DNA of 64,000 nucleotides, taken from contig CANOVJ010000010.1 in NCBI GenBank assembly GCA_947570615.1, forward strand, positions 1-64,000. Direction: 5' to 3'. Of this stretch, positions 21,423 to 50,163 are shown piece after piece. This DNA is from an uncultured Lachnospiraceae bacterium. GTDB taxonomy: Bacteria > Bacillota > Clostridia > Lachnospirales > Lachnospiraceae. The notes under the pieces were generated by a model. The model was not told the origin of the DNA and did no database searches. It saw nothing but the letters and a program-made list of their open reading frames with translations. The position numbers and the translations under genes were made by a program. Every line of letters begins with the position of its first letter. Positions within the stretch are counted from its first letter, which is position 1.

Positions 21423-21466
21423 AATGAAATAAATGTGTAACTTTTCGGGAGGTGAAAATTTCTGAT

Positions 21467-21853
21467 ATGCAGGAACAGTCAGGAAGGGAAGTAGAACAGA
21501 TGATTTCGCATATTATGCTGGATATGGGCGTACCCGCCCATCTGAAGGGATACCGGTATGTGCGCACAGCGGTGCTTATGGCGGAGGAGGACATGAAGGT
21601 GGTGGGGAGTGTGACCAAGCTTCTCTACCCCGAAATCGCCAAGCGCTATAATACCACGGACGGTAAGGTGGAGCGGGCCATCCGCAATGCCATTGAGATC
21701 TCGTGGGAGCGCGGAAACCGGGAAACCTTCGAGGAGATGTTCGGCTACTGTGTGGACAGCGGGCGGGGCAGACCAACCAACAGCGAGTACATAGCCACCA
21801 TCGCCGACGCCATCAGGGTGCGGCGGGGCGCGGCAGATAAACAGAAGGCGTAG
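21467..21853 (+). CDS. Stand-alone Spo0A C-terminal DNA-binding domain protein
   Basis: This 128-residue protein corresponds to the output domain of Spo0A without the receiver: LDMGVPAHLKGYRYVRTAV, LLYPEIAKRYNTTDGKVERA and SGRGRPTNSEYIATIADAI match the Spo0A C-terminal domain block for block, including the recognition helix. It should bind 0A-box-like DNA but cannot be phosphorylated itself, so it may compete with or assist Spo0A. ATG 21467 is chosen because the in-frame GTG at 21452 lies inside the SD GGGAGGTG. It directly precedes the glycan locus. Confidence 0.85.
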   Translation: MQEQSGREVEQMISHIMLDMGVPAHLKGYRYVRTAVLMAEEDMKVVGSVTKLLYPEIAKRYNTTDGKVERAIRNAIEISWERGNRETFEEMFGYCVDSGRGRPTNSEYIATIADAIRVRRGAADKQKA

Positions 21854-21930: not shown

Positions 21931-23139
21931 ATGGACAAGCCGGCAGTATGCGGGGGAATCCCCGTGCGGGAGAAGAAGATATATTACGGCCATCAGTATA
22001 TCGACGAGGCCGATATACAGGCGGTGGTGGAGGTTTTAAGGAGCGACGCCTTAACCTGCGGGCCGAAAATCCAGGAGCTGGAGGATAAGCTCTGTCGGAT
22101 CACGGGAGCAAAATATGCGGTGGTGTGCAGCAACGGAACCGCGGCGTTACATATGGCCTGCCAGGCGGCGGGAGTGGGAGAGGGGGATGAAGTGATCACC
22201 ACCCCCATCACCTTTGCCGCCTCGGCCAACTGCGCTCTCTACTGCGGCGCCAGGCCGGTCTTTGCGGATATCAATGAGGAAACCTGGAACATTGACCCGG
22301 AACAGGTGCGGGTTCTTACCACGCAGAGGACCCGGGCGGTGGTGGCTGTGGATTTTACAGGGCAGTCCGTGGAGCTGGATCCGCTTCTGGCTCACTGCAG
22401 GGAGAAGAATCTTGTCCTCATTGAGGACGGAGCCCATGTGATCGGCACCCGGTATAAAGACAGGTGCAACGGTTCCATTGCGGACATGACTACTCTGAGC
22501 TTTCATCCGGTTAAGACCGTCACCAGCGGAGAGGGGGGCGCGGTGCTCACCAACAGCGAGGCGTATTATAAAAAGCTGCTCCTGTACCGGGCTCACGGGA
22601 TCACCCGGGATCGGGGACAGCTTGTCCATAAGCCGGACGGGCCCTGGTATTATGAACAGCTCACCCTGGGAATGAATTACCGCATGACGGATATCCAGGC
22701 GGCGCTGCTGATCAGTCAGCTTGACAAGCTGCCCATGTTTTCGCGCAGAAGAAAAGAGATCGTAAGGGCCTACGACGAAGCTTTCGGGAAACTGCCTCAG
22801 GTGATCGTGCAGAGGGAGATACCGGAGTCGGACACCACCAGGCATCTGTATATCCTGCGGCTGAATCCGGACAGGCTTCGGATTGACCGCAGGGCGTTCT
22901 TTGAAGCCCTGGACGCGGAGAATGTGTGCTGTAATGTACATTATATTCCCACATACTATTTCCCGTACTATGAAAAGCTGGGTTATGCCAGGGGACTGTG
23001 CCCGAAGGCGGAGAAGCTCTATGAGGAGATCATCAGCCTGCCCCTGTACTATGCCATGACGGATCAGGATGTGCAGGATGTGATCAGAGCGGTGGAGCGT
23101 ATCGCGCTGTACTACGGCGTGCAGGGGACTTCGATATGA
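21931..23139 (+). CDS. pseC: PseC-like UDP-4-keto-sugar aminotransferase
   Basis: The DegT/DnrJ/EryC1 aminotransferase of 402 residues carries the hallmark N-terminus YGHQYIDEADIQAVVEVL and SDALTCGPKIQELE of PseC, the second enzyme of pseudaminic acid synthesis, which makes UDP-4-amino-4,6-dideoxy-AltNAc. The PLP lysine is in SFHPVKTVTSGEGGA near residue 195. The GT2 gene after it overlaps by ATGA. PseG, PseI and PseF homologues are encoded nearby on the other strand and a PseH-like protein about 18 kb away; a PseB dehydratase was not found in the window. Confidence 0.87.
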   Translation: MDKPAVCGGIPVREKKIYYGHQYIDEADIQAVVEVLRSDALTCGPKIQELEDKLCRITGAKYAVVCSNGTAALHMACQAAGVGEGDEVITTPITFAASANCALYCGARPVFADINEETWNIDPEQVRVLTTQRTRAVVAVDFTGQSVELDPLLAHCREKNLVLIEDGAHVIGTRYKDRCNGSIADMTTLSFHPVKTVTSGEGGAVLTNSEAYYKKLLLYRAHGITRDRGQLVHKPDGPWYYEQLTLGMNYRMTDIQAALLISQLDKLPMFSRRRKEIVRAYDEAFGKLPQVIVQREIPESDTTRHLYILRLNPDRLRIDRRAFFEALDAENVCCNVHYIPTYYFPYYEKLGYARGLCPKAEKLYEEIISLPLYYAMTDQDVQDVIRAVERIALYYGVQGTSI

Positions 23140-24191
23140 AGCTGAGTGTGATTGTGCCTGTTTATAACATGGCGTCCGGAGACAAGCTTTCCTGGTGCCT
23201 TGATTCTCTTGTGAACCAGACCGTGAGGGACTATGAGATCATTGCAGTGGACGACTGCTCCACCGACGATTCCCTTAAGATCCTGAGAGAATACGAGCGC
23301 AAATTCCCCGATAAGGTTCGGGTGATCGCCTCCCCTGAGAACAGAAGACAGGGAGGCGCGAAGAATCTGGGGCTTTCGCAGGCCGCCGGGGAGTGGATCG
23401 GCTTCATCGACAGCGACGACTGGGTGACGCCTGATTACTATGAAAAGCTCCTGGCCCGGGGGGAGGAGACGGGAGCGGACATGGTGGGCTGCGATTACCA
23501 TCTCACCAGCGCACACAGCATGGAGATCGGCCAGGTGGTACACAATAACAGGCCGGAGCAGACAGGGATGCTTACGAAAGAAAAATACCGGTCGCTGATT
23601 CTCGACAGCGGAAGTCTTGTGGTGAAGATTTACAGACGGCATATCATTCTGGACTATCCCAACCGTTTCCCGGAGCATATTTTTTATGAGGACAATGCCA
23701 TCGGAAATTCCTGGATGCTCAGGGCCAGGCATTTTGAGTATTTGCAGGAGCCTCTTTACTATTATTATCAGCATGAGACCTCCACTGTCCACACCATCAC
23801 GAAGCAGCGCTGTCTGGACCGGATGGAGGCGGCGCGGGTGATGGTGCGGGAGGCCAGGCAGTTTGGTTTTCTGGAGGAATACTATCCGGAAATCGAGAGC
23901 AGCTTTACCACCCTGTTTTATGTGAACACCCTGTTTTCCTATATGGCGGGGGTAAAAAAGAAGGAGTACGGATTTGTGAGGGCTCTCGGCCGGGAAATGC
24001 GGGAGGCTTTTCCGGGTTTCATGAGAAATCCGTATTATCAGGAGCGGGTGCATGAGGAGGAGCGCAGACTCATCAGAATGCACATGAAATCCACTCTGTA
24101 CTTTATGCTGTACTATAAGCTGCTGTGGATGTACCGCAATTTCAGAAAGCGCATCGACGAAAAGCAGGCGCCGAAGAACAAAGGTGCCTGA
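23136..24191 (+). CDS. Glycosyltransferase family 2
   Basis: The 351-residue enzyme has a GT-A domain at about 1-230 with LSVIVPVYNMA at the start, VDDCSTDDS near 39 and the donor metal motif GFIDSDDWVTPDYY near 90. A basic C-terminal tail (YRNFRKRIDEKQ) may contact membrane. ATG overlaps the pseC stop (ATGA), so it is part of the same operon. Acceptor and donor are unknown. Confidence 0.85.
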   Translation: MKLSVIVPVYNMASGDKLSWCLDSLVNQTVRDYEIIAVDDCSTDDSLKILREYERKFPDKVRVIASPENRRQGGAKNLGLSQAAGEWIGFIDSDDWVTPDYYEKLLARGEETGADMVGCDYHLTSAHSMEIGQVVHNNRPEQTGMLTKEKYRSLILDSGSLVVKIYRRHIILDYPNRFPEHIFYEDNAIGNSWMLRARHFEYLQEPLYYYYQHETSTVHTITKQRCLDRMEAARVMVREARQFGFLEEYYPEIESSFTTLFYVNTLFSYMAGVKKKEYGFVRALGREMREAFPGFMRNPYYQERVHEEERRLIRMHMKSTLYFMLYYKLLWMYRNFRKRIDEKQAPKNKGA

Positions 24192-24248
24192 ACAGCCCGG
24201 AGCGGCGTGCGGACAGATGAACAGGATGTGACAAAAGGGAGTAAAGAG

Positions 24249-25157
24249 ATGGAACTTGCGGTTTTGTCGGATATACATGGAAATTATGCAGCTCTTTCGG
24301 AATGTGTCTCCCTGGCCCTTTCCAGAGGAATTTCTACTTTTCTTTTCCTGGGTGATTATCTGGGGGAGATGGCTTATCCGGAGAGAACCATGGCGTTTTT
24401 GTACGATCTGAAGGATAAGTATGAATGCCTGTTTGTCAGGGGGAACAAGGAGGGCTACTGGCTGAGCCATGCCGAACGCGGCCAGGAGCAGGAGGGCTGG
24501 AAGGAGTATCATTCCACCACAGGATGTCTTGTGTATAACTGGTCCCGTCTGACCGGAAGGGATCTGGCGTTTTTTGAGGGGATGCCCATTGTGCGGCGGC
24601 TGGAATATGAGGGACTTCCGCCTCTTACGCTCTGTCACGGCTCGCCCTTGCGGGTGAATGAGAAGCTCCTGCCGGGGGATGAGAATACCCTGTCGGTGAT
24701 GGAGCGGACGGGGACGCCGATGCTCCTGTGCGGCCATACCCACCGTCAGGAGAAGATCATACACGAGGGAACGACTCTTCTCAACGCCGGGTCGGTGGGG
24801 CTTGGGCTGGATACCGGCGCGGGCCGTCCTCTGCAGGCGCAGTTTCTGATCCTGCACGGGGAGATTCGCCATGGAGAAAACCTTCCGGGTGCGGGGAGAT
24901 GGAGGGAGGAGTTTGTCAGCCTTCCCTATGATACGGAGCGGGTGATCCGGGAATTATATGAGGAAAAGCTGGATCAGCGGGCGCCGTACTGGACGCTGAT
25001 CACAGAGCGGATGCTTCGCACGGGATCCGGCGATCACGGGCGGGTACTGGCAAAAGCCATGGAGCTGTGCCGGGCGCAGGAGGGGCAGTGCATTTGGCCG
25101 GATATCCCGGAGCAATACTGGCAGCAGGCCTGGGAGATGGAGACGGGGCGGATATAG
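24249..25157 (+). CDS. Metallophosphoesterase (YfcE/ApaH-like)
   Basis: The 302-residue protein has the calcineurin-like metal motifs in order: VLSDIHGNYAAL at about 5-16, FLGDYLGE near 34, VRGNKEGYW near 62, CHGSPLRV near 130 and CGHTHRQEKII near 160. It should be a cytoplasmic phosphoesterase; in this place a role in turning over a sugar phosphate or nucleotide sugar is possible but not shown. ATG 24249 follows SD AAAGGGAG. The C-terminal 90 residues (from about 205) are an extra helical part not typical of YfcE. Confidence 0.75.
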   Translation: MELAVLSDIHGNYAALSECVSLALSRGISTFLFLGDYLGEMAYPERTMAFLYDLKDKYECLFVRGNKEGYWLSHAERGQEQEGWKEYHSTTGCLVYNWSRLTGRDLAFFEGMPIVRRLEYEGLPPLTLCHGSPLRVNEKLLPGDENTLSVMERTGTPMLLCGHTHRQEKIIHEGTTLLNAGSVGLGLDTGAGRPLQAQFLILHGEIRHGENLPGAGRWREEFVSLPYDTERVIRELYEEKLDQRAPYWTLITERMLRTGSGDHGRVLAKAMELCRAQEGQCIWPDIPEQYWQQAWEMETGRI

Positions 25158-25219
25158 CGGGGGATTCGGATCCCGGGTATGGCGGAAAGAGCCATATTAT
25201 GGAAAGGACTGGAGACAAA

Positions 25220-26440
25220 ATGAAGGCAGCGATAGCAGGCGCGGGAGAGGAAGCGCTGCATACCATCAGGAAGGCGCATGAATACGGACTTAAGGTGCTG
25301 GCTCTGGACGGAAATCCCGAAGCGGCCGGGCTTCGGGAGGCGGATGAGGCTCTGGTAGTGGATATATCCAATGAGGAGGCCGTGCTGCGCGCTCTGGGGG
25401 GCGCAGGGGTGGATTTTCTGCTGACGGCTCCCATCGGAAGATATCTGACCACCACCGGAGCGGCGAACGATGCCCTGGGGCTGCCGGGAATCAGCCGGGA
25501 AATGGCGGAGGTGTGTACGGATAAGTTCCGGTTTCACCAGAGACTGTGGGAAAATGGACTGCGGCAGTGCCGCTGCTATGGGGTGGAAGAGAATCGGATA
25601 ACGGATGCCGATGGAAGGGAATCGGAGCTTTCTGGCGCGGGAGGGCTTTCTGCCAGGGAGTGGGAGCTGTCTTTTCCGGCCATTTTAAAGCCCCGATATG
25701 GCTCAGGAAGCCGGGGGATCCATATGATTTCCGGCCCCGGGGACCTGGAGGGAGCGCTCAGGCAGGTCTTTGGGGAGCCTTATGTGCTGGAGGAGTGCGT
25801 CGCCGGACCGGAGTACGGTGTGGACGCGGCGGTGACCAGAGAGGGCTTCTGGATGATCCTGCTTCGTCTCAAGGAGAATACGCCGCCCCCGGCAAGGCAG
25901 GCGGTGGGTTATTTTTCTGTGCCGCCTTCGGATCCCTTCTACGGGAAGGTCAGGGACTACATGAGAGAGGCGGCCGTCTGTCTGGGCCTGGAGGAATGCC
26001 TGATCCACGCGGATATCATCCGGGGGGAAAACGGTCCCTTTGCCATAGAGCTCTCGGCCAGGCCCTCCGGCCATAATCTTCACAATCTTTTTACGCCCCT
26101 CTGCACAGGGGTGGACATGGCGGAGCAATACATCCGGTACAGGATGGGGCTTTCCCACAGCTTCCGCCCCCGGCAGACCAGATCCATGATGATCCATTAT
26201 TTTGATATGGAAGGAAGGGTCCGGCGGGCGCCGGAACGGGAACAGGTACAGAGAAACCTGAAAGCCCGCCTGGCGGCGTGGGAGTGCCGGATCAGAGCGG
26301 GGCAGGTGCTGGGGCCCGTATCCGACGGACACTCGCTGATGGGGCGGGGGTATTTCGTGCTGGAGGGGGGCGACGCTGCGTTTCTTCGGGAGCAGGGGGA
26401 GATTGTGAAGGGGTTATTTGGAGGAAGGACCTGGCTCTGA
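25220..26440 (+). CDS. ATP-grasp ligase of the nonulosonate module
   Basis: The 406-residue protein begins MKAAIAGAGEEALHTIRKA, a Rossmann-like N-domain, then the ATP-grasp fold: FPAILKPRYGSGSRGIHMI near 155 (nucleotide-binding Lys and Gly loop), YVLEECVAGPEYGVDAAV near 190 and the metal-site region HADIIRGENGPFAIELSARPSG near 265-285 (ADII, AIELSARP). Such enzymes join a carboxylate to an amine or similar group via acyl phosphate. Its place in the pseC operon suggests an N-acyl tailoring step. A low-complexity insert lies near 128-150. Its last 27 bases overlap the 3' end of pseG on the other strand. SD GGAG precedes ATG 25220; ATG 25199 is possible. Confidence 0.78.
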   Translation: MKAAIAGAGEEALHTIRKAHEYGLKVLALDGNPEAAGLREADEALVVDISNEEAVLRALGGAGVDFLLTAPIGRYLTTTGAANDALGLPGISREMAEVCTDKFRFHQRLWENGLRQCRCYGVEENRITDADGRESELSGAGGLSAREWELSFPAILKPRYGSGSRGIHMISGPGDLEGALRQVFGEPYVLEECVAGPEYGVDAAVTREGFWMILLRLKENTPPPARQAVGYFSVPPSDPFYGKVRDYMREAAVCLGLEECLIHADIIRGENGPFAIELSARPSGHNLHNLFTPLCTGVDMAEQYIRYRMGLSHSFRPRQTRSMMIHYFDMEGRVRRAPEREQVQRNLKARLAAWECRIRAGQVLGPVSDGHSLMGRGYFVLEGGDAAFLREQGEIVKGLFGGRTWL

Positions 26441-27697
26441 TGTACCGTCGCAGAGCCGATCCAGAGCCTTTGCAATCCGAAAAGCCCCCTTCCCGTCGAC
26501 AAGTCTGCGCATGGCCTCATGGGCAGACGCTCTCTCAGAGAAGGAATCTGATTCTGACATATCTGTCATAAAATTTATCAGCGACTGTATCGTTTCCAGC
26601 GGAGCCCTGCGCAGGTCTCCGGCCCAGGGAATCGCGCCCACAGCGTCAAATGCCCTGGCAGAGGGAATCTGGTTGTCTGCCATGGAAAAGCTGACAGCGG
26701 GAACGCCCAGGGCGCAGAGCTCATAGAGCGTGGTTCCCGCGGCCGAGACGGCCAGATCGCAGGCCTGCATCAGACCCGCCATATCGGACACGTTTTCGTG
26801 GAGACGTAAAAAGGGAATCTGTCCGGCCAGGAAGCGGAGCTCATCCCGGTCATCGTTCAGCTTTCCGATCACCATATGCACCGTGGGAAAAGGGGTCTGC
26901 CGGCTGCCGGGGCCGCCTCCAAAGTGGGGCCTCGGGCGGATATCAGCGTATTTTGCGGGTTCCTCTGTGGGATTGTCCTGCATATCCCGGAGAAAACGCC
27001 TTGCCAGGGAAAGGCAGAGATGGCCGCCGTCCCCGGCGCCGGTGGTGATAAGGATATTCTCTGCCTGTTTTCTCACAGGCATCGTCCGGTTTTGGAACTG
27101 CGTCCGCAGGGGAGCAAAGCAAGCCCCCAGAAGGAGCCTGTCGGCATTGCGGTAAGCCGACCGGTAAGAGGCAAGCTCATCCTGCGGTATCACATCATAA
27201 TTGACCAGCAGATCCACAGGATAGTCGAAAAGCTGCAGATCGTCCAGATATGCTACCCTGGCGAGAGGTCTTATGGCGGACAGATAGTCTTCGGTTACAT
27301 AGTAGGAGTCCAGGAGATATACGATCTCCCGAAGATAAACAATCTCCCGAAGATAAGTGACCTCCCCGGGGAGATCAGAAGAACGCGCTGCGCCGGAGAG
27401 AGGATTTGGGGCGCCGGCACGGGCATGTGCCCGAAGAAGCGCGGTTACCTCCTCAATCTCCCGCTGCGGCTGGTCATAAACGGCGGTTTTCAGCGCGGTC
27501 ACTTTCACAAATTCGCATTTGTTTTCCTTTATAAGTTCCTCAAGGAGGCGGAGACTCTCCCCCCCGCAGACCAGAAAACGCACCTCCATGCCAAGGCTGC
27601 GGCAGGCCTGGGCGATGGAAAGACACCGGACCAGATGGCCGGAGGCGATCTGGCGATTTCCGTCTGCGCGGATAAAGATCAGCGGATGAGTTCCCAT
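26414..27697 (-). CDS. pseG: PseG-like UDP-sugar hydrolase
   Basis: PseG removes UDP from the 2,4-diacetamido-trideoxy-altropyranose intermediate of pseudaminic acid synthesis. The 427-residue protein has the glycine/histidine signature IRADGNRQIASGHLVRCLSI at about 8-27 and the GT-B-like second half with SAAGTTLYELCALGVPAV near 325. It is longer than typical (about 280-360), partly because of a stretch at about 95-125 containing the tandem motif LREIVY, LREIVY, and a Pro/Gly-rich insert near 255-275. Start 27697 overlaps pseI by 19 bases. Confidence 0.83.
   Translation of the reverse strand: MGTHPLIFIRADGNRQIASGHLVRCLSIAQACRSLGMEVRFLVCGGESLRLLEELIKENKCEFVKVTALKTAVYDQPQREIEEVTALLRAHARAGAPNPLSGAARSSDLPGEVTYLREIVYLREIVYLLDSYYVTEDYLSAIRPLARVAYLDDLQLFDYPVDLLVNYDVIPQDELASYRSAYRNADRLLLGACFAPLRTQFQNRTMPVRKQAENILITTGAGDGGHLCLSLARRFLRDMQDNPTEEPAKYADIRPRPHFGGGPGSRQTPFPTVHMVIGKLNDDRDELRFLAGQIPFLRLHENVSDMAGLMQACDLAVSAAGTTLYELCALGVPAVSFSMADNQIPSARAFDAVGAIPWAGDLRRAPLETIQSLINFMTDMSESDSFSERASAHEAMRRLVDGKGAFRIAKALDRLCDGTSEPGPSSK
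27324..27356 (+). repeat. In-frame 18-base tandem repeat inside pseG
   Basis: ATCTCCCGAAGATAA occurs at 27324-27338 and 27342-27356, a period of 18 bases, encoding the doubled LREIVY segment on the minus strand. A third, decayed copy may follow toward 27370. Confidence 0.7.
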
Positions 27698-28731
27698 TGA
27701 AGCGGCGTTCCTTTCTTTAAGAAGGTTCTGGCCCTTTTTCCCAGAACATCCTCATAGTACATGGTGTGAAGTCCATCCGCCGGGCGGATGGAGCGGATAT
27801 TTTCCGGGGTCAGAACCTCCCCGGCGGCGATATCCTTCACCACAAACAGGGAGCGGGAATCGCCGCGCTCCAGCTTCTGCGTTTCGGTGAGGGCGTATTC
27901 GCTTTGGCCCAGGGCCTTTTCCATAATCCGGATGTCCCTTACCATCTGAGCGAACTCCTCCGGTTCCATGGAAAAGGAGCTGTCGGGGCCGCTGTCGCTG
28001 CGGCGCAGGGTCAGGTGCTTTTCCACCATCCGCACGCCCAGCGCGACGGACGAGGCGCTGACAATGGTTCCCATGGTATGATCGGAGATTCCCGTCAGGC
28101 AGTCCCAGGTTCGGGAAAGGGTGGGGATCATATTCAGGTTGATCTCCTCGTAGGGAGTGGGATAGGAGGAAACGCATTTGAGCAGGATCACCTCCTCGTT
28201 TCCCTCCTCCCGGCAGGTGTCGAGGGCCCGCCCGATGTCCTCGGGATACGCGATCCCGGTGGCAAATATCATGGGCTTATGGAGCCTGGCCGCTTTCCGG
28301 ATCAGGGGGATGTCGTTGATCTCGTAGGAGGCAATCTTAAAGGCGGGAACGTCCATCCCTGCAAGAAAATCCACAGAGGCCAGATCGAAGGGGGAGGAGA
28401 ACCACTCCATTCCCAGCCGGTTCGCCTCCTCCTTCAGACGGGGCTGCCACTCCCAGGGAGTAGAGGCCTGGGAATAGAGCTGGTAAAGGGTGAGACCGTC
28501 CCAGATCGTGCCCTCCTTAATCTGAAAACAGGGGTCGTCACAGTCGATGGTGATGCTGTCCGCGGTGTAGGTCTGCATTTTTACGGCGTCCGCCCCTGCC
28601 CCGGCGGCGGCGTGGATGATTTCCAGCGCCCGCCCATAGTCCTGGTTATGGTTGGCGGAGACCTCCGCCACCACAAAAACCGGGGAGCTGTGACTGAGCG
28701 TGCGGCTTCCGATCCTGATTTCCTTTTTCAT
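27679..28731 (-). CDS. pseI: Nonulosonic acid synthase (PseI/NeuB family)
   Basis: The enzyme condenses the 6-deoxy sugar with phosphoenolpyruvate to give the nine-carbon acid. The 350-residue protein has the NeuB barrel with FVVAEVSANHNQDYGRALEI at about 18-37, ADAVKMQTYTADSIT near 49, GISDHTMG near 215 and the C-terminal antifreeze-like SAF domain (VKDIAAGEVLTPENIR near 300). The start at 28731 fits family length and has SD AAAGGAA; the in-frame ATG at 28809, overlapping the upstream stop codon, would add 26 unconserved residues. Confidence 0.9.
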   Translation of the reverse strand: MKKEIRIGSRTLSHSSPVFVVAEVSANHNQDYGRALEIIHAAAGAGADAVKMQTYTADSITIDCDDPCFQIKEGTIWDGLTLYQLYSQASTPWEWQPRLKEEANRLGMEWFSSPFDLASVDFLAGMDVPAFKIASYEINDIPLIRKAARLHKPMIFATGIAYPEDIGRALDTCREEGNEEVILLKCVSSYPTPYEEINLNMIPTLSRTWDCLTGISDHTMGTIVSASSVALGVRMVEKHLTLRRSDSGPDSSFSMEPEEFAQMVRDIRIMEKALGQSEYALTETQKLERGDSRSLFVVKDIAAGEVLTPENIRSIRPADGLHTMYYEDVLGKRARTFLKKGTPLQWELIR

Positions 28732-28808
28732 GGTTCTGTATTCCTTTCCGTGATCTGTGTACTGCGGATACCGGGGAGCTGATGATTTCCGGCAGATATG
28801 GGGGCGCA

Positions 28809-30011
28809 TTACTCCGTGTAGCAGAGCTGCAAAAATTCTTTATTGGTCCAGGGGCTCCTTGCGGTGAAGAGAGAGCCGTCCTGATGCTCCACGTATACGG
28901 CCGGAAAATAATTGATAAACAGAGGATTTAAGCACATGGTGTATCCCCCGGCGGTATCGTAGATGATTTTATCCCCGGGTATAAGCGCCGCATCGTCCCT
29001 GATCTCAAAAAGCCGGTCGTACTCCATACAGGTCGCCCCGCACACCCACTGGCTGGCCTCTCTTTTCCTGACAGCCGCATCGGATATATATTCCATATGA
29101 TGAGGGTAAACGTGTCTGGTCACCAGGGGATTTAAGTTGGTGCGGCTCCCGTCCGTGACCACAAATTTCCGCCCCCGGATATCCTTTACATCCAGCACGG
29201 TGGTCTCAAAGGTGGTGGCTCTCGAGATCAGGGACACGCCGGGCTCCGCGATCAGGGCGGTCTTTCGGGGGCTGAAATGAGCGGATAACTCCCTGCAGAT
29301 TTCCCGGAAATAATCCCGGTAATCGGGCATATCATCCCGGCCTCCGAAATAGCCGCCGCCCATATCCACATAGGAGAGGGAAAGATCATATTCCCGGGCG
29401 ATCTGCACGGCCATCCTGGCCAGCGCGCCGAACACCTGCACGGTACGGGACTGGGTGGAGGAATGGAGATGAAGCCCGGTCACCGTTACGTTGGGAAGAG
29501 CTCTCAGCCGGCGGATGGCGGCTTCCAGCACACCATTTTCGTAACAGTAGCCGAACCGCCCGCCCTCCTCCGAGGCCAGAACCTCTCCGGGGCAGAGCTT
29601 CGCCAGATCGCAGTTGACGCGCAGACCCACCCCGAAACGCACGTCAGGATGAAGTGTACTGAGATACTCCATCCACTCCAGCTCGTAGCCGGAATCAAGG
29701 TTGATATAGCTGCCGGCCAGCAGAGCGGCCTGAAAAATGGTCTTATCCTTGATGGGGCCGTTGTAGATGATGCGGTTTGCCGGATAGCCCAGCCGTCTGG
29801 CCAGGTCGTACTCTGCCGCTGACACCACCTCGGCATAAAAACCCTGCTCCCTCAGATATTTGAGAAGCCAGGGCAGGGAATTGGTCTTGACGGAGTAGCC
29901 CATGAGCGCGTTTCCCCAGTTTTCGGCAAGGGAATCCCGCAGAAGGGAGATGTCATATAATAAATCCTTTTCCCGGATACGGAAAAAAGGGGTCTGTAAC
30001 GGTTCTTTCAT
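28809..30011 (-). CDS. PLP-dependent fold-III decarboxylase (LysA/NspC-like)
   Basis: The 400-residue protein is an alanine-racemase-fold decarboxylase: PLP lysine in GYSVKTNSLPWLL near 40, HLHSSTQ near 190, the phosphate-binding GGGYFGG near 230, EPG near 270 and the C-terminal catalytic CGATCMEYDRL near 335. Relatives decarboxylate diaminopimelate, carboxynorspermidine or ornithine/lysine. It lies between pseF and pseI, in the same direction and almost without gaps, where no decarboxylase is part of the textbook pathway, so a tailoring role (supply of an amine) is inferred. The exact substrate is not predictable from the motifs. Confidence 0.82.
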   Translation of the reverse strand: MKEPLQTPFFRIREKDLLYDISLLRDSLAENWGNALMGYSVKTNSLPWLLKYLREQGFYAEVVSAAEYDLARRLGYPANRIIYNGPIKDKTIFQAALLAGSYINLDSGYELEWMEYLSTLHPDVRFGVGLRVNCDLAKLCPGEVLASEEGGRFGYCYENGVLEAAIRRLRALPNVTVTGLHLHSSTQSRTVQVFGALARMAVQIAREYDLSLSYVDMGGGYFGGRDDMPDYRDYFREICRELSAHFSPRKTALIAEPGVSLISRATTFETTVLDVKDIRGRKFVVTDGSRTNLNPLVTRHVYPHHMEYISDAAVRKREASQWVCGATCMEYDRLFEIRDDAALIPGDKIIYDTAGGYTMCLNPLFINYFPAVYVEHQDGSLFTARSPWTNKEFLQLCYTE

Positions 30012-30074
30012 AAACAGAAATCCTGTCCCTTTCCATAGCCTGCATGCGTCGGGCGGCAGGCACAATATTGCAGA

Positions 30075-30782
30075 TCATACAGGTTTGATTTTATCCGGGT
30101 GCAGCAGCCTGTATTTCATCTCGGCCAGAGTCCAGTCCTGCACCGTATCGATATCCTGTACCTCCATCTCTGTCAGCACAAGGGGAAGAAGACGCTTCAC
30201 ATCGGTGGTTCCCTCCGCGAAAAAGGCGTCCGTGCGGCAGGCGTAAAACTGGCCGCAGTCGTGGAAAATCGGAGGGAGATCCTGACTGCGGGCGCTGGCG
30301 TACTCCGGGAACTGCCATCTGACATAGCCCTTTTCATCCTGGATCAGCCCCCGCTGGGGGGGATAGGAAAAGGGGACCACGGGCGTTACCCCGTCGGCCC
30401 TGGAGAGAAGCTCCATGGCGTTTTTCAGGCGCTGGGCGCTCAGAAAGGGGGCGGTGGGATAGATACAGCAGAAAGCGTCGAAGCTCCGGCCTCTCTCCTC
30501 ATAGGTTTTGAGTACCTCCATGATCACATCGTCGGTGGAGGCATAGTCCCCGGCCGTATGGGCCGAACGGAAAAAAGGGACCACGGCCCCGGCCTTTTCG
30601 GCCGTACGGGCAATCTCCTCATCCTCGGTGGACACCATGATCTCCTCAAAGACCCCGGCCTCCAGAGCGGCCTCTATGGAATAACAGATGATTGGCTTTC
30701 CGCAGAATTCCTTAATATTCTTTCGGGGGATCCGCTTGCTGCCTCCCCTGGCAGTGATGATGGCCAGATTTTTTTCCTTCAT
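30075..30782 (-). CDS. pseF: CMP-nonulosonic acid synthetase (PseF/NeuA family)
   Basis: The 235-residue cytidylyltransferase activates the nonulosonic acid with CTP. It begins with the CMP-sugar synthetase motif LAIITARGGSKRIPRKNIK, followed by GKPIICYSIEAAL and STEDEEIARTA; CIYPTAPFL near 100 is the next conserved block, and DIDTVQDW near 215 completes the pattern. ATG 30782 has SD AGAGGTG. It is the first gene of the minus-strand operon pseF, decarboxylase, pseI, pseG. Confidence 0.9.
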   Translation of the reverse strand: MKEKNLAIITARGGSKRIPRKNIKEFCGKPIICYSIEAALEAGVFEEIMVSTEDEEIARTAEKAGAVVPFFRSAHTAGDYASTDDVIMEVLKTYEERGRSFDAFCCIYPTAPFLSAQRLKNAMELLSRADGVTPVVPFSYPPQRGLIQDEKGYVRWQFPEYASARSQDLPPIFHDCGQFYACRTDAFFAEGTTDVKRLLPLVLTEMEVQDIDTVQDWTLAEMKYRLLHPDKIKPV

Positions 30783-30920: not shown

Positions 30921-32054
30921 ATGAGGAAAGCGAAACCGGACGGAAAGCGGGTCTATATCTGCCACACCTATTATCATGTATACATCGCCTGCCTGAAGGA
31001 GCTGAATCTGCCGGTGAGCGGGAAGGGGCCTGTGCGGGGACAGGCCAGTCTGATGCTCAGCACCCTCTCCAGCGATTTCGGATCGCTGGGCGAGCGGGCG
31101 GAGAAGTCGGGGCTGTTTAAGGAGATTATCTGCTATGAGGAGAAGGGGGAGGATTTTTTTCCGGAGCTGGCGCCCCTGCATAAGGACCGGAAAAATCTGG
31201 CGCTGAACATGCTCTGCCGGATCAGATTTACGAAGCGCATGGGCAGGCTGCAGGCGGCCTATGTCCCGGTGGATCTGCGGGAGTACGGGGATATCTATGT
31301 GTTCTGTGATTCGGACCCCATCGGCTATTACCTGAATACTTATAAGATCCCTTATCATGCCATGGAGGACGGGCTGGACTGTATCCGTTATTACGACGCC
31401 GCCCGCTACGATAACAGGGGACATTTCCGGCTGAAGGCCTGGATGGCGGCCCGGAATCTGATCTTTATCCAGAACGGATACTCCAAATACTGCCTGGATA
31501 TGGAGGTCAACGATCTCTCCGTGCTGGAGTATCCCTGTCCGAAGTACATCGAAAGGCCCAGAGCGGAGCTGACGGCAGGACTGGGAAGGGAAGAGAAAAG
31601 GACGCTTGTGTCGATTTTTCTGGAAAATGCGCAGGAGCTTAGAGAGGCTCTCTTTTCCGGGGAGGAGAACCGGCCCAGGGTGCTGGTGCTCACGGAGCCG
31701 CTCTGCGACCTTGAGACCAGGGAGAGGATTTTCAGGGATATCATCAGGCAGTATGGGGCGGTGGGCGCTCAGCAGGCGCAGATCCTGTTAAAACCCCACC
31801 CCAGAGATGTGCTGGACTATCGGAAGCTGTTTCCGGAGCACATTGTTCTGGACGGAAAGTTTCCCATGGAGATCCTGAATTATGTGGAAAATCTCTCGTT
31901 CGACAGAGTGGTTACGGTTTTCACGGTCCCCTCCGCCATTTCCTTTGCCAGGGAACGGGTTTTTCTGGGGGAGGATTTCATGGACCGGTACGAAGCGCCG
32001 CAGATCCACAGGCAGAACGAGCAGATACAGAAAAACGCGCGGAGCAGACAATGA
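30921..32054 (+). CDS. Sialyltransferase-like glycosyltransferase (EDG/HP motifs)
   Basis: The 377-residue protein has the two motifs shared by GT-B bacterial sialyltransferases and polysialyltransferases: the D/E-D/E-G motif, here MEDGLDCIRYY with EDG at 149-151, and the HP motif, here LLKPHPRDV with His 293 and Pro 294. After it come TVFTVPSAISFA, in the position of the nucleotide-binding serine segment. No signal peptide or membrane helix is seen, so it should act in the cytoplasm. Being divergent from the CMP-nonulosonate genes, it is the best candidate for the transferase that attaches the nonulosonic acid. GT52 or a related family is likely; ATG 30921 follows SD GGAGGGAG. Confidence 0.68.
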   Translation: MRKAKPDGKRVYICHTYYHVYIACLKELNLPVSGKGPVRGQASLMLSTLSSDFGSLGERAEKSGLFKEIICYEEKGEDFFPELAPLHKDRKNLALNMLCRIRFTKRMGRLQAAYVPVDLREYGDIYVFCDSDPIGYYLNTYKIPYHAMEDGLDCIRYYDAARYDNRGHFRLKAWMAARNLIFIQNGYSKYCLDMEVNDLSVLEYPCPKYIERPRAELTAGLGREEKRTLVSIFLENAQELREALFSGEENRPRVLVLTEPLCDLETRERIFRDIIRQYGAVGAQQAQILLKPHPRDVLDYRKLFPEHIVLDGKFPMEILNYVENLSFDRVVTVFTVPSAISFARERVFLGEDFMDRYEAPQIHRQNEQIQKNARSRQ

Positions 32055-32228: not shown

Positions 32229-33986
32229 ATGAAAAAAATTCTGAAAAAGCTGATGGTGCTGCTGGATAAGCGGCAGAAAAGGATAATGGCGCTTCTGGTT
32301 CTGCTGATGCTGGCCGGGGCGGTGCTGGAGACGCTTGGAGTCTCCATGGTGTTTCCGGTGATGAATGTGGTGATGGACGAGCACGCGGTGGAGAACCACC
32401 GGTATTTACAGATCGCCTGCGACATTCTGCATATCGATTACGGGGATACCAGGACCCTGGCGGCGGCCACCATGGCGGCCCTGGTGGGGGTGTTCGCCGC
32501 CAAAAATATTTTTCTCTTTTTCCAGCAGAAGGCCCAGCTTAAGTTTGTCTATACCAATCAGTTTGCCACCTCCAGAAGAATGATGATCAATTTTATGGAG
32601 AGGCCCTACGAATATTATCTGAATGCGGACACTTCGGTGATCCAGAGGAGCATCACCTCCGATGTAAACAACATGTACGGCCTGATTCTGGCTCTTTTGC
32701 AGCTTGCCAGCGAGGCGGTGGTTTTCATATGTCTGGTGGTGGTGAGCCTGGTGGCGGATATCTGGATGACAGTGACGGTAACCGCGCTGCTTCTGATCGT
32801 GCTGGCGGTGATCAAGGGCGTGTTAAAGCCCATCATGCGAAAGGCCGGGGAGGAGAACCAGGATTACTACAGCGGCCTGTACAAGTGGATCGATCAGTCC
32901 GTGATGGGGATCAAGGAGATCAAGATCGCCTGTAAGGAAAATTACTTTATCAACGAATACGCCAAATGCGGCTCCGGCTATGTGAACGCGGTGCAGAGAT
33001 ACAATCTGTACAACGCCACGCCCCGGCTTCTCATCGAGACGGTGGCCATCGCCGCGCTGATTTTTTATATGTTGATTCAGATTCTGAGAGGAACCGGCGT
33101 ATCGGCCATTCTGCCCCAGGTGACGGCCCTGGGGGTGGCGGCCATGCGTCTGATCCCCTGCGCCAACCGGATCAACAATCATCTGACTTCGATTTCTTAT
33201 TTTGAGCCCTTTTTCATGGGGGTCAGCGATAATCTTCAGGAGGAAATCCGGGACGAATCCATCAATTATGAGCAGTCCGCCTATCAGAACAGCGTGGAGG
33301 TGGACAAGCTTCAGATCCGGGAAAAAATCGAGCTTCGGGATATTGTCTACAGATATCCCAACTCCGATGTGCTGATCTTTGACCATGCCGATCTGGAGAT
33401 CCCCATCGGAAAATCCGTGGGCATCGTGGGAACCTCAGGCGCGGGCAAGACCACGGTGGTGGACATTCTGCTCGGGCTTTTAAAGCTGCAGGGCGGCGAG
33501 ATCCTGGCGGACGGGAAACCGGTCAGAGAGCATTATCAGTCCTTCCTCAAAAATGTGGGCTACATTCCCCAGACCATTTTCATGATCGATTCCACCATCC
33601 GGAAAAATGTGGCCTTTGGCTGCGCGGACGAGGAGATCGACGATGAGAAGGTCTGGCGCGCTCTTGAGGAGGCCCAGCTCGATGCGTTCGTAAGAGCGCT
33701 GCCGGAGGGCCTGGATACCGGGATCGGGGAGCGGGGAATCCGCATTTCCGGCGGACAGAGGCAGAGGATCGGTATTGCCAGAGCGTTGTTTGAGGATCCG
33801 GAGGTGCTGGTGCTGGACGAGGCCACCTCGGCCCTTGACAACGAGACGGAGGCTGCCATCATGGACTCCATCAACAGGCTTCACGGGCGAAAGACGCTGA
33901 TCATTATCGCGCACCGCCTGCAGACCATCGAGAAGTGCGATATGGTATACCGGGTGGAAAAGGGAAAGGCCCGCCGGGAGAGGTAG
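32229..33986 (+). CDS. ABC transporter/flippase, fused membrane and ATPase domains (PglK/MsbA type)
   Basis: The 585-residue half-transporter has about six membrane helices (about 15-310) and a C-terminal nucleotide-binding domain with Walker A GTSGAGKTT near 400, signature ISGGQRQRIGIARAL near 505 and Walker B VLVLDEATSALD. It works as a homodimer. In glycan loci such proteins flip lipid-linked oligosaccharides (PglK, WlaB). Its position between the sugar activation genes and the membrane glycosyltransferases, and the absence of a Wzx flippase in the window, support that role. Confidence 0.86.
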   Translation: MKKILKKLMVLLDKRQKRIMALLVLLMLAGAVLETLGVSMVFPVMNVVMDEHAVENHRYLQIACDILHIDYGDTRTLAAATMAALVGVFAAKNIFLFFQQKAQLKFVYTNQFATSRRMMINFMERPYEYYLNADTSVIQRSITSDVNNMYGLILALLQLASEAVVFICLVVVSLVADIWMTVTVTALLLIVLAVIKGVLKPIMRKAGEENQDYYSGLYKWIDQSVMGIKEIKIACKENYFINEYAKCGSGYVNAVQRYNLYNATPRLLIETVAIAALIFYMLIQILRGTGVSAILPQVTALGVAAMRLIPCANRINNHLTSISYFEPFFMGVSDNLQEEIRDESINYEQSAYQNSVEVDKLQIREKIELRDIVYRYPNSDVLIFDHADLEIPIGKSVGIVGTSGAGKTTVVDILLGLLKLQGGEILADGKPVREHYQSFLKNVGYIPQTIFMIDSTIRKNVAFGCADEEIDDEKVWRALEEAQLDAFVRALPEGLDTGIGERGIRISGGQRQRIGIARALFEDPEVLVLDEATSALDNETEAAIMDSINRLHGRKTLIIIAHRLQTIEKCDMVYRVEKGKARRER

Positions 33987-37110: not shown

Positions 37111-37143
37111 GGCTGTAAAATTGCCGGAATGGAGGGCGGAAAA

Positions 37144-38274
37144 ATGATAAGATTTAACGTCCCCCCCTGTACGGGGCGGGAGCTGGAGAATATAAAGAAG
37201 TCCATAGAGAGCATGCACATCTGCGGAGACGGGGAATTTACCAGAAAGTGCAGCGCCTGGCTGGAGGAGATCACCGGCACGGCGAAGTGTCTGCTCACCA
37301 CCTCCTGCACTCACGCCCTGGAGATGGCGGCGCTGCTGTGCGGACTGAAGGAGGGGGATGAGGTGATCGTTCCCTCCTATACCTTTGTGTCCACGGCGGA
37401 CGCCTTTGTGCTGCGGGGGGCCAGGGCGGTGTTTGTGGATATCCGGCCTGACACCATGAACATTGATGAGACGCTGATCGAGGCGGCCATCACGGAGAAG
37501 ACCAGGGCCATCTTCCTGGTACATTACGCGGGGGTCGCCTGCGAGATGGACACGATCATGGATATTGCCCGCAGACATGACCTGAAGGTGGTGGAGGACG
37601 CCGCTCAGGCCATCATGTGCAGCTATAAGGGAAGGCCCCTTGGAACCATCGGGGATTTCGGGTGCCTGAGCTTTCATGAGACCAAGAATTTCAGCATGGG
37701 GGAGGGCGGAGCTCTTCTGATCAGAGACCCGGCCTGTATTGAGGAGGCCGAGATTCTGCGGGAGAAGGGGACGGACCGGAGCAAATATTACAGGGGGCAG
37801 GTGGACAAGTACAGGTGGATGAACTATGGTTCCTCCTACCTTCCCAGCGATATGAACGCGGCCTATCTTTATTCCCAGTTTGAGATGGCGGAGGAGATCA
37901 ACCGGACCAGGCTCGCCCGCTGGAACCAGTATTGGGAGCTGCTTTTACCGCTGCAGCAGGCAGGGAAGGCAGAGCTTCCCGTGATCCCCGGGGACTGCGT
38001 ACACAATGGGCACATGTTTTATATCAAGACAGGGGACCCTGAGGAGAGGGGAAGGCTTATCGATTTTCTGAAGGAAAAGGGGATTATGGCGGTGTTTCAT
38101 TATATTCCTCTCCATTCCGCGCCGGCCGGCCTTAAGTTCGGGCGGTTCTTCGGGGAGGATCGCCATACCACCAGGGAAAGCGAAAGGCTTCTGCGGCTTC
38201 CCATGTTTTATCAGCTCACAAAGGAGGAAGTGGCGTACATTGCGGGAGCTGTGAGGGAGTTTTATGGAATGTAA
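37144..38274 (+). CDS. WecE-like dTDP-4-keto-6-deoxyhexose aminotransferase
   Basis: The 376-residue DegT-type enzyme has the length of E. coli WecE and its motifs: IRFNVPPCTGRELENIKKSI, CLLTTSCTHALEMAALL, DEVIVPSYTFVSTADAF and the PLP lysine in LSFHETKNFSMGEGGAL near 187. WecE makes dTDP-4-amino-4,6-dideoxygalactose (Fuc4N precursor). No dTDP-glucose genes (rmlA, rmlB) are in the window, so the keto sugar must come from elsewhere or the substrate differs. Its 3' end overlaps the next gene by 11 bases. Confidence 0.82.
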   Translation: MIRFNVPPCTGRELENIKKSIESMHICGDGEFTRKCSAWLEEITGTAKCLLTTSCTHALEMAALLCGLKEGDEVIVPSYTFVSTADAFVLRGARAVFVDIRPDTMNIDETLIEAAITEKTRAIFLVHYAGVACEMDTIMDIARRHDLKVVEDAAQAIMCSYKGRPLGTIGDFGCLSFHETKNFSMGEGGALLIRDPACIEEAEILREKGTDRSKYYRGQVDKYRWMNYGSSYLPSDMNAAYLYSQFEMAEEINRTRLARWNQYWELLLPLQQAGKAELPVIPGDCVHNGHMFYIKTGDPEERGRLIDFLKEKGIMAVFHYIPLHSAPAGLKFGRFFGEDRHTTRESERLLRLPMFYQLTKEEVAYIAGAVREFYGM

Positions 38275-40207: not shown

Positions 40208-40233
40208 TGCTGCGGCAGTGGAAGGGGATGGGC

Positions 40234-40752
40234 ATGATTATGGAAAATCAGAGGTTTTTCCTGCGCCCCATGACAGGGGAGGATACGGACAGGATCATTC
40301 GCTGGCGGAATCAGGATTTTGTGCGCAGGAATTTTATTTACCAGGAGCCCTTTACCAGAGAGGGCCATGAAAACTGGATCAGAACCATGATCGATACCGG
40401 GCGGGCGGTTCAGTTCATTCTCTGCATGGACCGGGAGCCTGTGGGCAGCGTGTATCTGCGGGATATCGACCGCAGACACAGCCGGGCGGAATACGGGATT
40501 TTTATCGGCGAACGGAATGCCTGGGGGCAGGGGGCCGGCACGTGGGCGGCCCGGGAGATGATCCGCTTTGCCTTTGAGAGGGAGAGACTGCACAAGCTCA
40601 TGCTGCGGGTGCTGGCGGAGAACGCCGGGGCCATAAAAAGCTACGGGAAGGCGGGGTTTGAGCGGGAGGCATATCTTCGGGACGAGGTGTTCCTGGAAGG
40701 GCAGTATAAGGATGTAATTTATATGGCGGTGTTAAACAAAGCCAGGAAATGA
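40234..40752 (+). CDS. GNAT N-acetyltransferase, PseH/RimJ-like
   Basis: The protein of about 172 residues has the start FFLRPMTGEDTDRIIRWRN typical of PseH and RimJ/L-type GNATs, the acetyl-CoA region AWGQGAGTWAAREMI near 100 and the C-terminal block ENAGAIKSYGKAGFEREAYL. PseH acetylates the 4-amino group in pseudaminic acid synthesis, and this is the only GNAT in the window, but it lies about 18 kb from pseC and might instead serve the wecE-like product next to it. Start among ATG 40228, 40234 and 40240 is uncertain; SD GGAAGGGG favours 40234. Stop overlaps the next ATG. Confidence 0.75.
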   Translation: MIMENQRFFLRPMTGEDTDRIIRWRNQDFVRRNFIYQEPFTREGHENWIRTMIDTGRAVQFILCMDREPVGSVYLRDIDRRHSRAEYGIFIGERNAWGQGAGTWAAREMIRFAFERERLHKLMLRVLAENAGAIKSYGKAGFEREAYLRDEVFLEGQYKDVIYMAVLNKARK

Positions 40753-49437: not shown

Positions 49438-49447
49438 AGGGAGAAGG

Positions 49448-50080: not shown

Positions 50081-50163
50081 AAAAACGTCTCCCGGCGAAG
50101 GAGGCGTCCGCAGGGGGCTCTTTCAAAGGCCCCGGGCGGCAGATTCAGAAAGGAAGGGATCGG

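What the first reader, a model, noticed from the sequence alone, without database searches (positions are those of the whole stretch)
21931..30782. Nonulosonic acid module with an ATP-grasp ligase and a PLP decarboxylase
pseC, pseG, pseI and pseF homologues define a pseudaminic-like pathway, but a decarboxylase sits between pseF and pseI and an ATP-grasp ligase closes the pseC operon; pseB and an adjacent pseH are missing. Known clostridial flagellin sugars carry amino-acid-derived N-acyl groups, so the extra enzymes may make and attach such a group. This may be an undescribed nonulosonic acid derivative.
Basis: inference. Interest (0 to 1): 0.75.

Follow-up and report, generated by a model that had tools for sequence, protein, structure and literature searches.

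The report
Ligase-decarboxylase pair decorating pseudaminic acid
A gut bacterium's genes for a sialic-acid-like sugar carry an ATP-using ligase and a decarboxylase that recur together in several amino-sugar pathways and probably attach a trimmed amino acid to the sugar, which may give a not yet described sugar with a free amine.

Summary
The genes are there: pseC, pseG, pseI and pseF homologues, a PLP (alanine-racemase-fold) decarboxylase between pseF and pseI, and an ATP-grasp ligase ending the pseC operon. The absences hold only locally: pseB is elsewhere in the genome and a PseH-like GNAT is at 40207-40752, beside a WecE-like aminotransferase. In 397 sampled Lachnospiraceae genomes, 22 of 23 decarboxylase copies have an ATP-grasp in the locus, of differing subtypes, in Pse, bacillosamine-type and unclassified clusters. 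Beside pseI, ATP-grasp and PseH were never seen together (0 of 50 loci). Best explanation: the ATP-grasp replaces PseH and joins an amino diacid by its side chain to the 4-amine of the PseC product; the decarboxylase then removes the alpha-carboxylate, giving a beta-alanyl or 4-aminobutyryl amide at N-7 of Pse. This rests on gene context and known relatives (PglB2, BtrK, FigC); no chemistry was shown and the structure predictions never returned. New variant of a known kind.

The parts
21931..23139 (+). pseC: 4-aminotransferase making the UDP-4-amino precursor
   Evidence: NCBIfam PseC 454.3 bits over cut-off 423.5
23136..24191 (+). GT2 glycosyltransferase of the pseC operon
   Evidence: Pfam Glycos_transf_2 123.2 bits; a homologue in 53 of 78 decarboxylase loci
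24249..25157 (+). metallophosphoesterase in the pseC operon; role unknown, probably not part of the pathway
   Evidence: Pfam Metallophos_2; in the other loci searched only one weak match, in L132
25220..26440 (+). ATP-grasp ligase (type A), proposed to acylate the 4-amine with an amino acid in place of PseH
   Evidence: Pfam ATP-grasp_4; solved relatives by profile: 4dim, then L-amino acid ligases; homologue of this type in 61 of 78 decarboxylase loci
26414..27697 (-). pseG: UDP-sugar hydrolase, with inserts
   Evidence: TIGR03590 146.3 bits, just under cut-off 153.55, in two stretches
27679..28731 (-). pseI: pseudaminic acid synthase
   Evidence: TIGR03586 455.0 bits over cut-off
28809..30011 (-). 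PLP-dependent alanine-racemase-fold decarboxylase, proposed to remove the alpha-carboxylate of the sugar-tethered amino acid
   Evidence: Pfam; best PDB match N-citrylornithine decarboxylase; K42 and C328 the same in 39 of 39 homologues
30075..30782 (-). pseF: CMP-Pse synthetase
   Evidence: TIGR03584 268.5 bits over cut-off
30921..32054 (+). GT52-family glycosyltransferase, likely the transferase for the CMP-nonulosonate (inference)
   Evidence: Pfam Glyco_transf_52 44.9 bits; in 63 of 78 decarboxylase loci
32229..33986 (+). ABC transporter, probably the flippase of the surface glycan (inference)
   Evidence: Pfam ABC_tran + ABC_membrane; ABC label in 61 of 78 loci
37129..38274 (+). WecE-like 4-aminotransferase of a second 4-amino sugar (not the proposed acceptor)
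   Evidence: NF008687 607.6 bits over cut-off
40207..40752 (+). GNAT over the PseH cut-off, proposed to serve the WecE-like gene's sugar
   Evidence: TIGR03585 100.6 bits, cut-off 93.1; 1.8-1.9 kb from degT2 in the window and in L033, L046, L052, L062, L067
46320..51156 (+). pglF-like, LegC-like, pglC-like, ATP-grasp B operon without a decarboxylase: internal comparison
   Evidence: in relatives a decarboxylase sits in such an operon

Best explanation
The locus makes a pseudaminic acid whose N-7 group is not acetyl but a decarboxylated amino acid. PseB (encoded elsewhere) and PseC make UDP-2-acetamido-4-amino-2,4,6-trideoxy-L-altrose. In place of the acetyltransferase PseH, the ATP-grasp ligase activates the side-chain carboxylate of an amino diacid (aspartate or glutamate) and joins it to the 4-amine. 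The PLP decarboxylase removes the alpha-carboxylate of the tethered amino acid, leaving a beta-alanyl or 4-aminobutyryl amide with a free terminal amine. PseG, PseI and PseF then give the CMP-nonulosonate, and the GT52-type transferase adds it to a surface polysaccharide. Shown here: gene identities, conserved linkage, the pairing of the decarboxylase with different ATP-grasps across sugar pathways, and no PseH-like gene beside pseI where an ATP-grasp is. Inferred: the substrates, which amino acid, the order of steps, the final sugar.
For: (a) Linkage: 73 of 78 decarboxylase loci have pseI and 64 an ATP-grasp; 51 of the 56 with at least 9 kb on both sides. (b) In 397 family genomes there are 23 decarboxylase copies in 22 genomes; 21 have an ATP-grasp of my types A (10) or B (11) in the fetched locus, a 22nd (L150) has Pfam ATPgrasp_ST, the 23rd (L149) an Asn_synthase 1.7 kb upstream instead. 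In all 11 type-B loci the two open frames abut or overlap on one strand (-133 to +4 nt). (c) Different sugars: PglF/LegC-like/PglC operons (L127, L146), WecE+ArnC-like (L088, L091, L092), and PseC-decarboxylase-ATP-grasp B with no pseI in the 19.5 kb fetched (L143; PseC over cut-off). What these pathways share is the 4-amine. (d) PseH swap: of 50 pseI loci, ATP-grasp beside pseI in 9, PseH in 19, both in 0, neither in 22, Fisher p=0.008; with the decarboxylase as marker too, PseH in 0 of 14 against 19 of 36, p=0.0003 (five of the 14 are one genus). (e) One genome (G080) has Pse with PseH and, about 18 kb away, a separate decarboxylase + ATP-grasp B beside pglF/pglC. (f) The decarboxylase is not the housekeeping LysA: 125.6 bits vs cut-off 297.9; another gene scores 283.4; its best solved relative acts on a tethered amino acid. 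(g) Precedents read in passages: clade of decarboxylases of tethered amino acids, iso-aspartyl to beta-alanyl, Neisseria acetyltransferase/ATP-grasp alternatives for the same 4-amino sugar.
Against: In the window the two genes are in separate, convergent operons. pseC itself is in only 28 of the 78 fetched loci, and 14 of 78 lack an ATP-grasp, five of them with good flanks (L030, L040, L055, L059, L060). 22 of 50 pseI loci have neither PseH nor ATP-grasp within about 1.5 kb, so genes for this step are often unlinked. Of the 9 ATP-grasps in that test four outside the window were confirmed by Pfam; L116's partial frame was not and L096, L105, L153 were not submitted. The Fisher tests ignore shared ancestry, and all 23 Pse-linked decarboxylases in the tree form one group (94/99), perhaps a single recruitment. 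A PseH-like GNAT in the window could act on Pse in trans.
Confidence: 0.58

Rival explanations
1. Reverse order: the decarboxylase acts on a free amino acid and the ATP-grasp attaches the resulting amine-bearing acid (for example beta-alanine) to the 4-amine. The final sugar could be the same.
For: The decarboxylase family includes free-substrate enzymes (LysA and ornithine decarboxylases among its PDB matches). Fungal E-64 clusters pair an ATP-grasp with a decarboxylase thought to supply free amines (PMC12568646, passages); odds raised from 0.17 to 0.19 for this.
Against: The best solved relative by sequence and by profile works on a tethered substrate, as do BtrK, MccE, SbnH and AcsE of its clade; in the bolagladin case beta-alanine feeding did not rescue. 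ATP-grasps occur without the decarboxylase in the locus (L098, L101, L102, L106; window 50077-51156), whereas all 23 sampled decarboxylase copies have an ATP-grasp or an Asn_synthase in the locus.
Confidence: 0.19
2. The pair modifies another 4-amino sugar of the same polysaccharide, the WecE-like product made by degT2 (37129-38274), and merely lies among pse genes.
For: degT2 is in 47 of 78 decarboxylase loci, and L088, L091 and L092 pair decarboxylase, ATP-grasp C and a WecE-like gene without pse genes recognised.
Against: In the window degT2 is followed by its own GNAT, kept in five other loci. The ATP-grasp sits with pseC, or directly before pseF-decarboxylase-pseI-pseG in Butyrivibrio. 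L143 has PseC-decarboxylase-ATP-grasp B with no WecE-like gene detected. No PseH-like gene was seen beside pseI where an ATP-grasp is.
Confidence: 0.1
3. The ATP-grasp amidates a carboxylate of the nonulosonic acid (or another sugar acid) with a diamino acid and the decarboxylase trims that.
For: FigC decarboxylates an amino acid joined by an amine to a carboxylate.
Against: The gene pair is also in bacillosamine-type and WecE-type clusters, whose precursor sugars have, by established pathway knowledge, no carboxylate but do have the 4-amine.
Confidence: 0.06
4. The decarboxylase is an ordinary lysine-pathway or polyamine enzyme that happens to lie here.
For: NCBIfam's best match is LysA (125.6 bits).
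Against: Far below the LysA cut-off 297.9, whereas another gene of the genome scores 283.4, itself just under; the EPGR motif is in none of 39 homologues; linkage to pse and ATP-grasp genes in dozens of genomes.
Confidence: 0.02

Closest known systems
Pseudaminic acid pathway PseB-C-H-G-I-F
   Same: PseC, PseI, PseF over curated cut-offs, PseG just under, PseB elsewhere in the genome
   Different: No PseH beside pseI; ATP-grasp and decarboxylase added
Neisseria PglB2 (ATP-grasp/phosphoglycosyltransferase making the glyceramido sugar GATDH)
   Same: An ATP-grasp in place of the acetyltransferase for the same kind of 4-amino sugar; pglB and pglB2 are mutually exclusive (PMC11130364, passages)
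   Different: Bacillosamine-type sugar, a glyceramido group, no decarboxylase named in the passages
BtrK, VinO and BolN: decarboxylation of carrier-bound amino acids
   Same: An alanine-racemase-fold enzyme turns a carrier-bound glutamyl or iso-aspartyl group into the GABA or beta-alanyl form (PMC7857480, PMC7756342, passages). That BtrJ, the loading enzyme, is an ATP-grasp is recalled
   Different: Tether is a carrier protein in antibiotic pathways; here proposed to be a nucleotide sugar or sugar
FigC/FslC N-citrylornithine decarboxylase
   Same: Best solved relative (7kh2); shares a C-M-x-x-D loop
   Different: Siderophore substrate; its ELGR loop has an arginine that is absent here
C. botulinum flagellin sugar Leg5GluNMe7Ac
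   Same: A nonulosonic acid carrying a glutamic-acid-derived acyl group (cited in PMC5207245, passage)
   Different: Legionaminic acid, N-5 position, N-methyl, not decarboxylated
Fungal E-64 clusters (ATP-grasp plus PLP decarboxylase)
   Same: The two enzyme types in one cluster (PMC12568646, passages)
   Different: Small-molecule inhibitor; decarboxylase thought to supply free polyamines and dispensable in the host used

Membership tests
Pseudaminic acid pathway | PseC, PseI and PseF over their curated cut-offs | tested here: met
   454.3/423.5, 455.0/340.25, 268.5/205.7 bits
Pseudaminic acid pathway | PseG hydrolase over cut-off | tested here: inconclusive
   146.3 vs 153.55 bits, two stretches
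Pseudaminic acid pathway | PseB present in the genome | tested here: met
   542 bits, over cut-off, on contig C4
Pseudaminic acid pathway | PseH acetyltransferase for the 4-amine, linked to the pathway | tested here: not met
   The only GNAT over the PseH cut-off is about 11 kb from pseI, beside degT2; an ATP-grasp is linked instead
Diaminopimelate decarboxylase (LysA) | NCBIfam LysA cut-off 297.9 | tested here: not met
   125.6 bits; another gene of the genome scores 283.4, itself just under the cut-off
Diaminopimelate decarboxylase (LysA) | Arginine of the EPGR loop (recalled as typical) | tested here: not met
   Window EPGV; no EPGR in 39 homologues; the genome's LysA-like gene has EMGR
Alanine-racemase-fold decarboxylases | PLP lysine and catalytic cysteine | tested here: met
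   K42 and C328 in 39 of 39 homologues; roles assigned by alignment
Tethered-amino-acid decarboxylases (FigC, BtrK type) | Substrate is an amino acid bound to a larger carrier | not testable with these tools
   Only sequence kinship and pairing with ligases
ATP-grasp carboxylate-amine ligases | ATP-grasp domain over Pfam gathering score | tested here: met
   PF13535 41.0 vs 27
ATP-grasp acylation replacing acetylation of a 4-amino sugar (PglB2 type) | Mutual exclusion with the acetyltransferase gene | tested here: met
   0 of 50 pseI loci have both; p=0.008, not corrected for kinship
ATP-grasp acylation replacing acetylation of a 4-amino sugar (PglB2 type) | Acylation of the 4-amine in vitro | not testable with these tools
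   No assay possible

The most novel reading that the evidence does not exclude
An 'aminoacylate, then decarboxylate' cassette (ATP-grasp plus a dedicated decarboxylase family marked by EPG-without-R, RFG[YF]CYENG and CMExDR with variants) moves between pathways of 4-amino-6-deoxy sugars (Pse precursor, bacillosamine-type, Fuc4N-type) in gut Lachnospiraceae and at least one actinomycete, turning each 4-amine into a beta-alanyl or GABA-type amide and so placing cationic, zwitterion-forming sugars, including an undescribed nonulosonic acid, in surface polysaccharides.
Probability: 0.5. Interest if true: 0.76.

Novelty: new variant of a known kind. Interest (0 to 1): 0.62.

Why it matters
If true, it adds a modular route by which gut commensals put free amines on nonulosonic acids and other 4-amino sugars. 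Free amines can make a polysaccharide zwitterionic, a property that I recall as important for immune recognition (no call). It also gives annotators a marker: a 'LysA-like' gene next to an ATP-grasp and a DegT aminotransferase is probably not lysine biosynthesis but sugar decoration. It offers an answer to what does PseH's job in some pse clusters without pseH, and it gives exact masses to look for.

Tried and rejected
Lysine biosynthesis by chance placement: rejected (below cut-off, another LysA-like gene, conserved linkage). Incomplete pathway because pseB is missing: rejected, pseB is elsewhere. PseH-like gene absent from the genome: rejected; one exists but lies by degT2. Flagellin as the target: not settled; flagellin domains (5 matches) and one PF01973 match are on other contigs.

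Led nowhere: PHROGs search of three proteins (no match). Amino acid specificity (Asp or Glu) could not be read from sequence. Both structure predictions were polled up to and never returned, so no fold search or pocket analysis was made.

Literature: one search found no held paper with pseudaminic acid, ATP-grasp and decarboxylase together. One search found 3 papers with the first two terms; I read passages of two. Searches were otherwise seen as listings (15 of 38, 20 of 75). Only the held open library was searched. PMC3268129, on ATP-grasp amidoligases, is not held.

Rows left out: in the 50-locus test the pseI matches under the PseI cut-off were not used (10 of 33 rows), and's 40 rows the 10 without a locus were not examined. 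L116 counts among the 9 ATP-grasps by my own HMM but Pfam found nothing in its partial frame; without it the split is 8 ATP-grasp, 19 PseH, 0 both, 23 neither.

Full report
WHAT IS THERE. On the + strand, pseC (21931-23139), a GT2 (23136-24191), a metallophosphoesterase (24249-25157) and an ATP-grasp protein (25220-26440) follow one another. On the - strand, converging on them, lie pseF (30782-30075), a PLP decarboxylase (30011-28809), pseI (28731-27679) and pseG (27697-26414). NCBIfam places PseC, PseI and PseF over their cut-offs and PseG slightly under; Pfam recognises the ATP-grasp and both decarboxylase domains. Next come a GT52-family transferase, an ABC transporter, an acyltransferase and a run of glycosyltransferase and sugar genes, so this is part of a surface polysaccharide cluster.

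WHAT IS NOT MISSING. PseB is on another contig of the same genome (542 bits, over cut-off), with no other pse gene recognised among the ten neighbours scanned. In L131 and L140 the order pseB-pseC-GT2-ATP-grasp is in one place. The genome's only GNAT over the PseH cut-off is in the window at 40207-40752. It lies 1.8-1.9 kb from the WecE-like degT2 in the window and in L033, L046, L052, L062 and L067; in L128 a PseH-like GNAT instead abuts pseI, 4.7 kb from degT2. So the window's GNAT most likely serves the WecE-like sugar.

THREE 4-AMINO SUGARS, THREE N-ACYLATING ENZYMES. The window has PseC with ATP-grasp A; WecE-like degT2 with the GNAT; and a pglF-like, LegC-like, pglC-like operon with ATP-grasp B (46320-51156). 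This one-to-one pattern suggests that ATP-grasp A serves the PseC product (inference).

LINKAGE IN OTHER GENOMES. A scan of one genome per species gave 78 loci encoding close relatives of the decarboxylase. Of these 73 have pseI, 71 pseG, 63 the GT52, 28 pseC and 64 an ATP-grasp within the fetched DNA; of the 56 with at least 9 kb on both sides, 51 have an ATP-grasp. Loci lacking pseI are L041 (has pseC and ATP-grasp), L056 (cut short), L088, L091 and L092. The patterns came from the window's own protein and favour close relatives. A less biased sample of 397 family genomes gave 22 genomes with 23 copies. Ten copies have an ATP-grasp A in the locus, 0 to 5 kb away (eight of these loci also have pseI); eleven abut an ATP-grasp B; one (L150) has a sugar-transfer ATP-grasp (ATPgrasp_ST) beside it; one (L149) has an asparagine-synthase-type protein 1.7 kb upstream and a DesI-like aminotransferase. 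Phylum-wide the gene is rare: 3 of 398 genomes, namely the window's own, one more of the family and one (G491, L137) of another family, with an ATP-grasp 1.9 kb away. In a 120-genome family sample 7 had the decarboxylase and 4 ATP-grasp A; those 4 all had the decarboxylase, though in G094 on a different contig, beside an ATP-grasp B.

ONE DECARBOXYLASE, SEVERAL SUGARS. ATP-grasp types A, B and C are about 19-31% identical to each other, apart from very short matches, while the decarboxylases of non-Pse contexts keep 38-52% identity to the window's. Of the eleven type-B loci, L127 and L146 are pglF-LegC-like-pglC-decarboxylase-ATP-grasp operons, L129, L145 and L147 show part of that set, L143 is PseC-decarboxylase-ATP-grasp with no pseI in the fetched 19.5 kb (PseC 458.7 bits over cut-off), and L126, L130, L142, L148 and L151 remain unclassified. 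Type C loci are WecE-like + ArnC-like GT2 + ATP-grasp + decarboxylase (L088; L091 and L092 of the actinomycete Paraeggerthella hongkongensis). What the classified contexts share is a 4-amino-6-deoxy sugar made by a DegT-family aminotransferase. In a tree of 41 proteins the 23 Pse-linked decarboxylases form one group (94/99) and the others surround it; the bootstrap had not settled and some long branches make deeper joins unsure.

ATP-GRASP IN PLACE OF PSEH. Among 50 pseI loci from two genome samples, within about 1.5 kb of pseI, 9 have an ATP-grasp, 19 a PseH-like GNAT, none both, 22 neither (Fisher one-sided p=0.008). The labels come from HMMs built here. Pfam confirmed the ATP-grasp in L098, L101, L102 and L106 and the window, found nothing in the partial frame of L116, and was not asked about L096, L105 and L153. 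With the decarboxylase also taken as marker the split is 0 of 14 against 19 of 36 (p=0.0003), five of the 14 being from one genus. With the NCBIfam PseH model at E up to 1e-8, mostly under its cut-off, a match lay within 10 kb of pseI in 0 of 4 genomes with ATP-grasp A and 9 of 19 without (my count; the window's match is 11.6 kb away, so the line matters). None of these tests corrects for kinship. ATP-grasps abutting pseI in L098, L101 and L106 carry the L-amino-acid-ligase domain LAL_C2, with no decarboxylase in those short loci: the ligase is found without the decarboxylase, whereas all 23 sampled decarboxylase copies have an ATP-grasp or Asn_synthase in the locus.

THE DECARBOXYLASE. Its best PDB match is N-citrylornithine decarboxylase (2.4e-28 as a single sequence, 9.9e-55 as a profile), ahead of diaminopimelate decarboxylases and BtrK. 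K42, E256 and C328 are the same in 39 of 39 homologues. In the same 39 no EPGR occurs, C[MVI]ExD is in all, CMExDR in 34 and RFG[YF]CYENG in 28. The genome's LysA-like gene (283.4 bits, just under the cut-off) is a different one on contig C77; its neighbours look like hisF and hisH by eye.

READING OF THE LITERATURE. PMC7857480 (passages and sections 7 and 13): FigC, SbnH, AcsE, MccE and BtrK form a clade with DAPDC and D-ODC, and the five act on amino acids bound to something larger. PMC7756342 (one passage): VinO turns a methyl-isoaspartyl thioester into a methyl-beta-alanyl one, and bolN mutants are not rescued by beta-alanine. PMC11130364 (passages): pglB (acetyltransferase) and pglB2 (ATP-grasp) are mutually exclusive in Neisseria. 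PMC3210612 (passages): a 4-(2-hydroxyglutar-5-ylamido) group on a 2,4,6-trideoxyglucose shows that such a 4-amine can carry a diacid by its far carboxylate. PMC5207245 and PMC5207246 (passages): amino acids on clostridial flagellar sugars, with an ATP-grasp gene near. Against my order of steps, PMC12568646 (passages): in fungal E-64 clusters a PLP decarboxylase next to an ATP-grasp is thought to supply free amines. BtrJ's nature is recalled.

CONCLUSION. The gene evidence supports a ligase-decarboxylase pair acting on the 4-amine of several sugars and taking PseH's place in this pseudaminic pathway. Which amino acid, and the order of ligation and decarboxylation, are inferred from relatives. 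The predicted nonulosonic acid, Pse5Ac7(beta-alanyl) or Pse5Ac7(4-aminobutyryl), is a hypothesis with exact masses to test.

Noticed in passing
window 21452-21853 (+): A stand-alone Spo0A DNA-binding domain gene (PF08769, 137.3 bits) directly precedes pseC; a homologue lies within 142 nt of pseC in 15 other loci. Perhaps a regulator of the operon.
   Followed up: partly
L013 3156-9229 (same genome, contig C8): A 30% identical decarboxylase paralogue follows an IlvE-like aminotransferase and an HpcH/HpaI-type aldolase, with a PseF-like cytidylyltransferase (70.6 bits, under cut-off) 2.4 kb downstream: possibly another activated, decarboxylated building block.
   Followed up: partly
L098 178-1404, L101 2499-3728, L106 1621-2964: L-amino-acid-ligase-type ATP-grasps (LAL_C2) abut pseI in pse loci where no decarboxylase or PseH was seen within about 1.5 kb, suggesting aminoacylated Pse.
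   Followed up: partly
L149 5447-12439: A decarboxylase homologue near an asparagine-synthase-type protein and a DesI-like aminotransferase: perhaps another ligase in the ATP-grasp's place.
   Followed up: partly
window 24249-25157 (+): The metallophosphoesterase in the pseC operon has only one weak match (L132) in the other loci.
   Followed up: partly
window 26414-27697 (-): PseG carries inserts, including a near-repeat YLREIVYLREIVYL, and falls just below the family cut-off.
   Followed up: no
window 58100-60007 (+): An asparagine-synthase-type amidotransferase lies in the same polysaccharide cluster.
   Followed up: no
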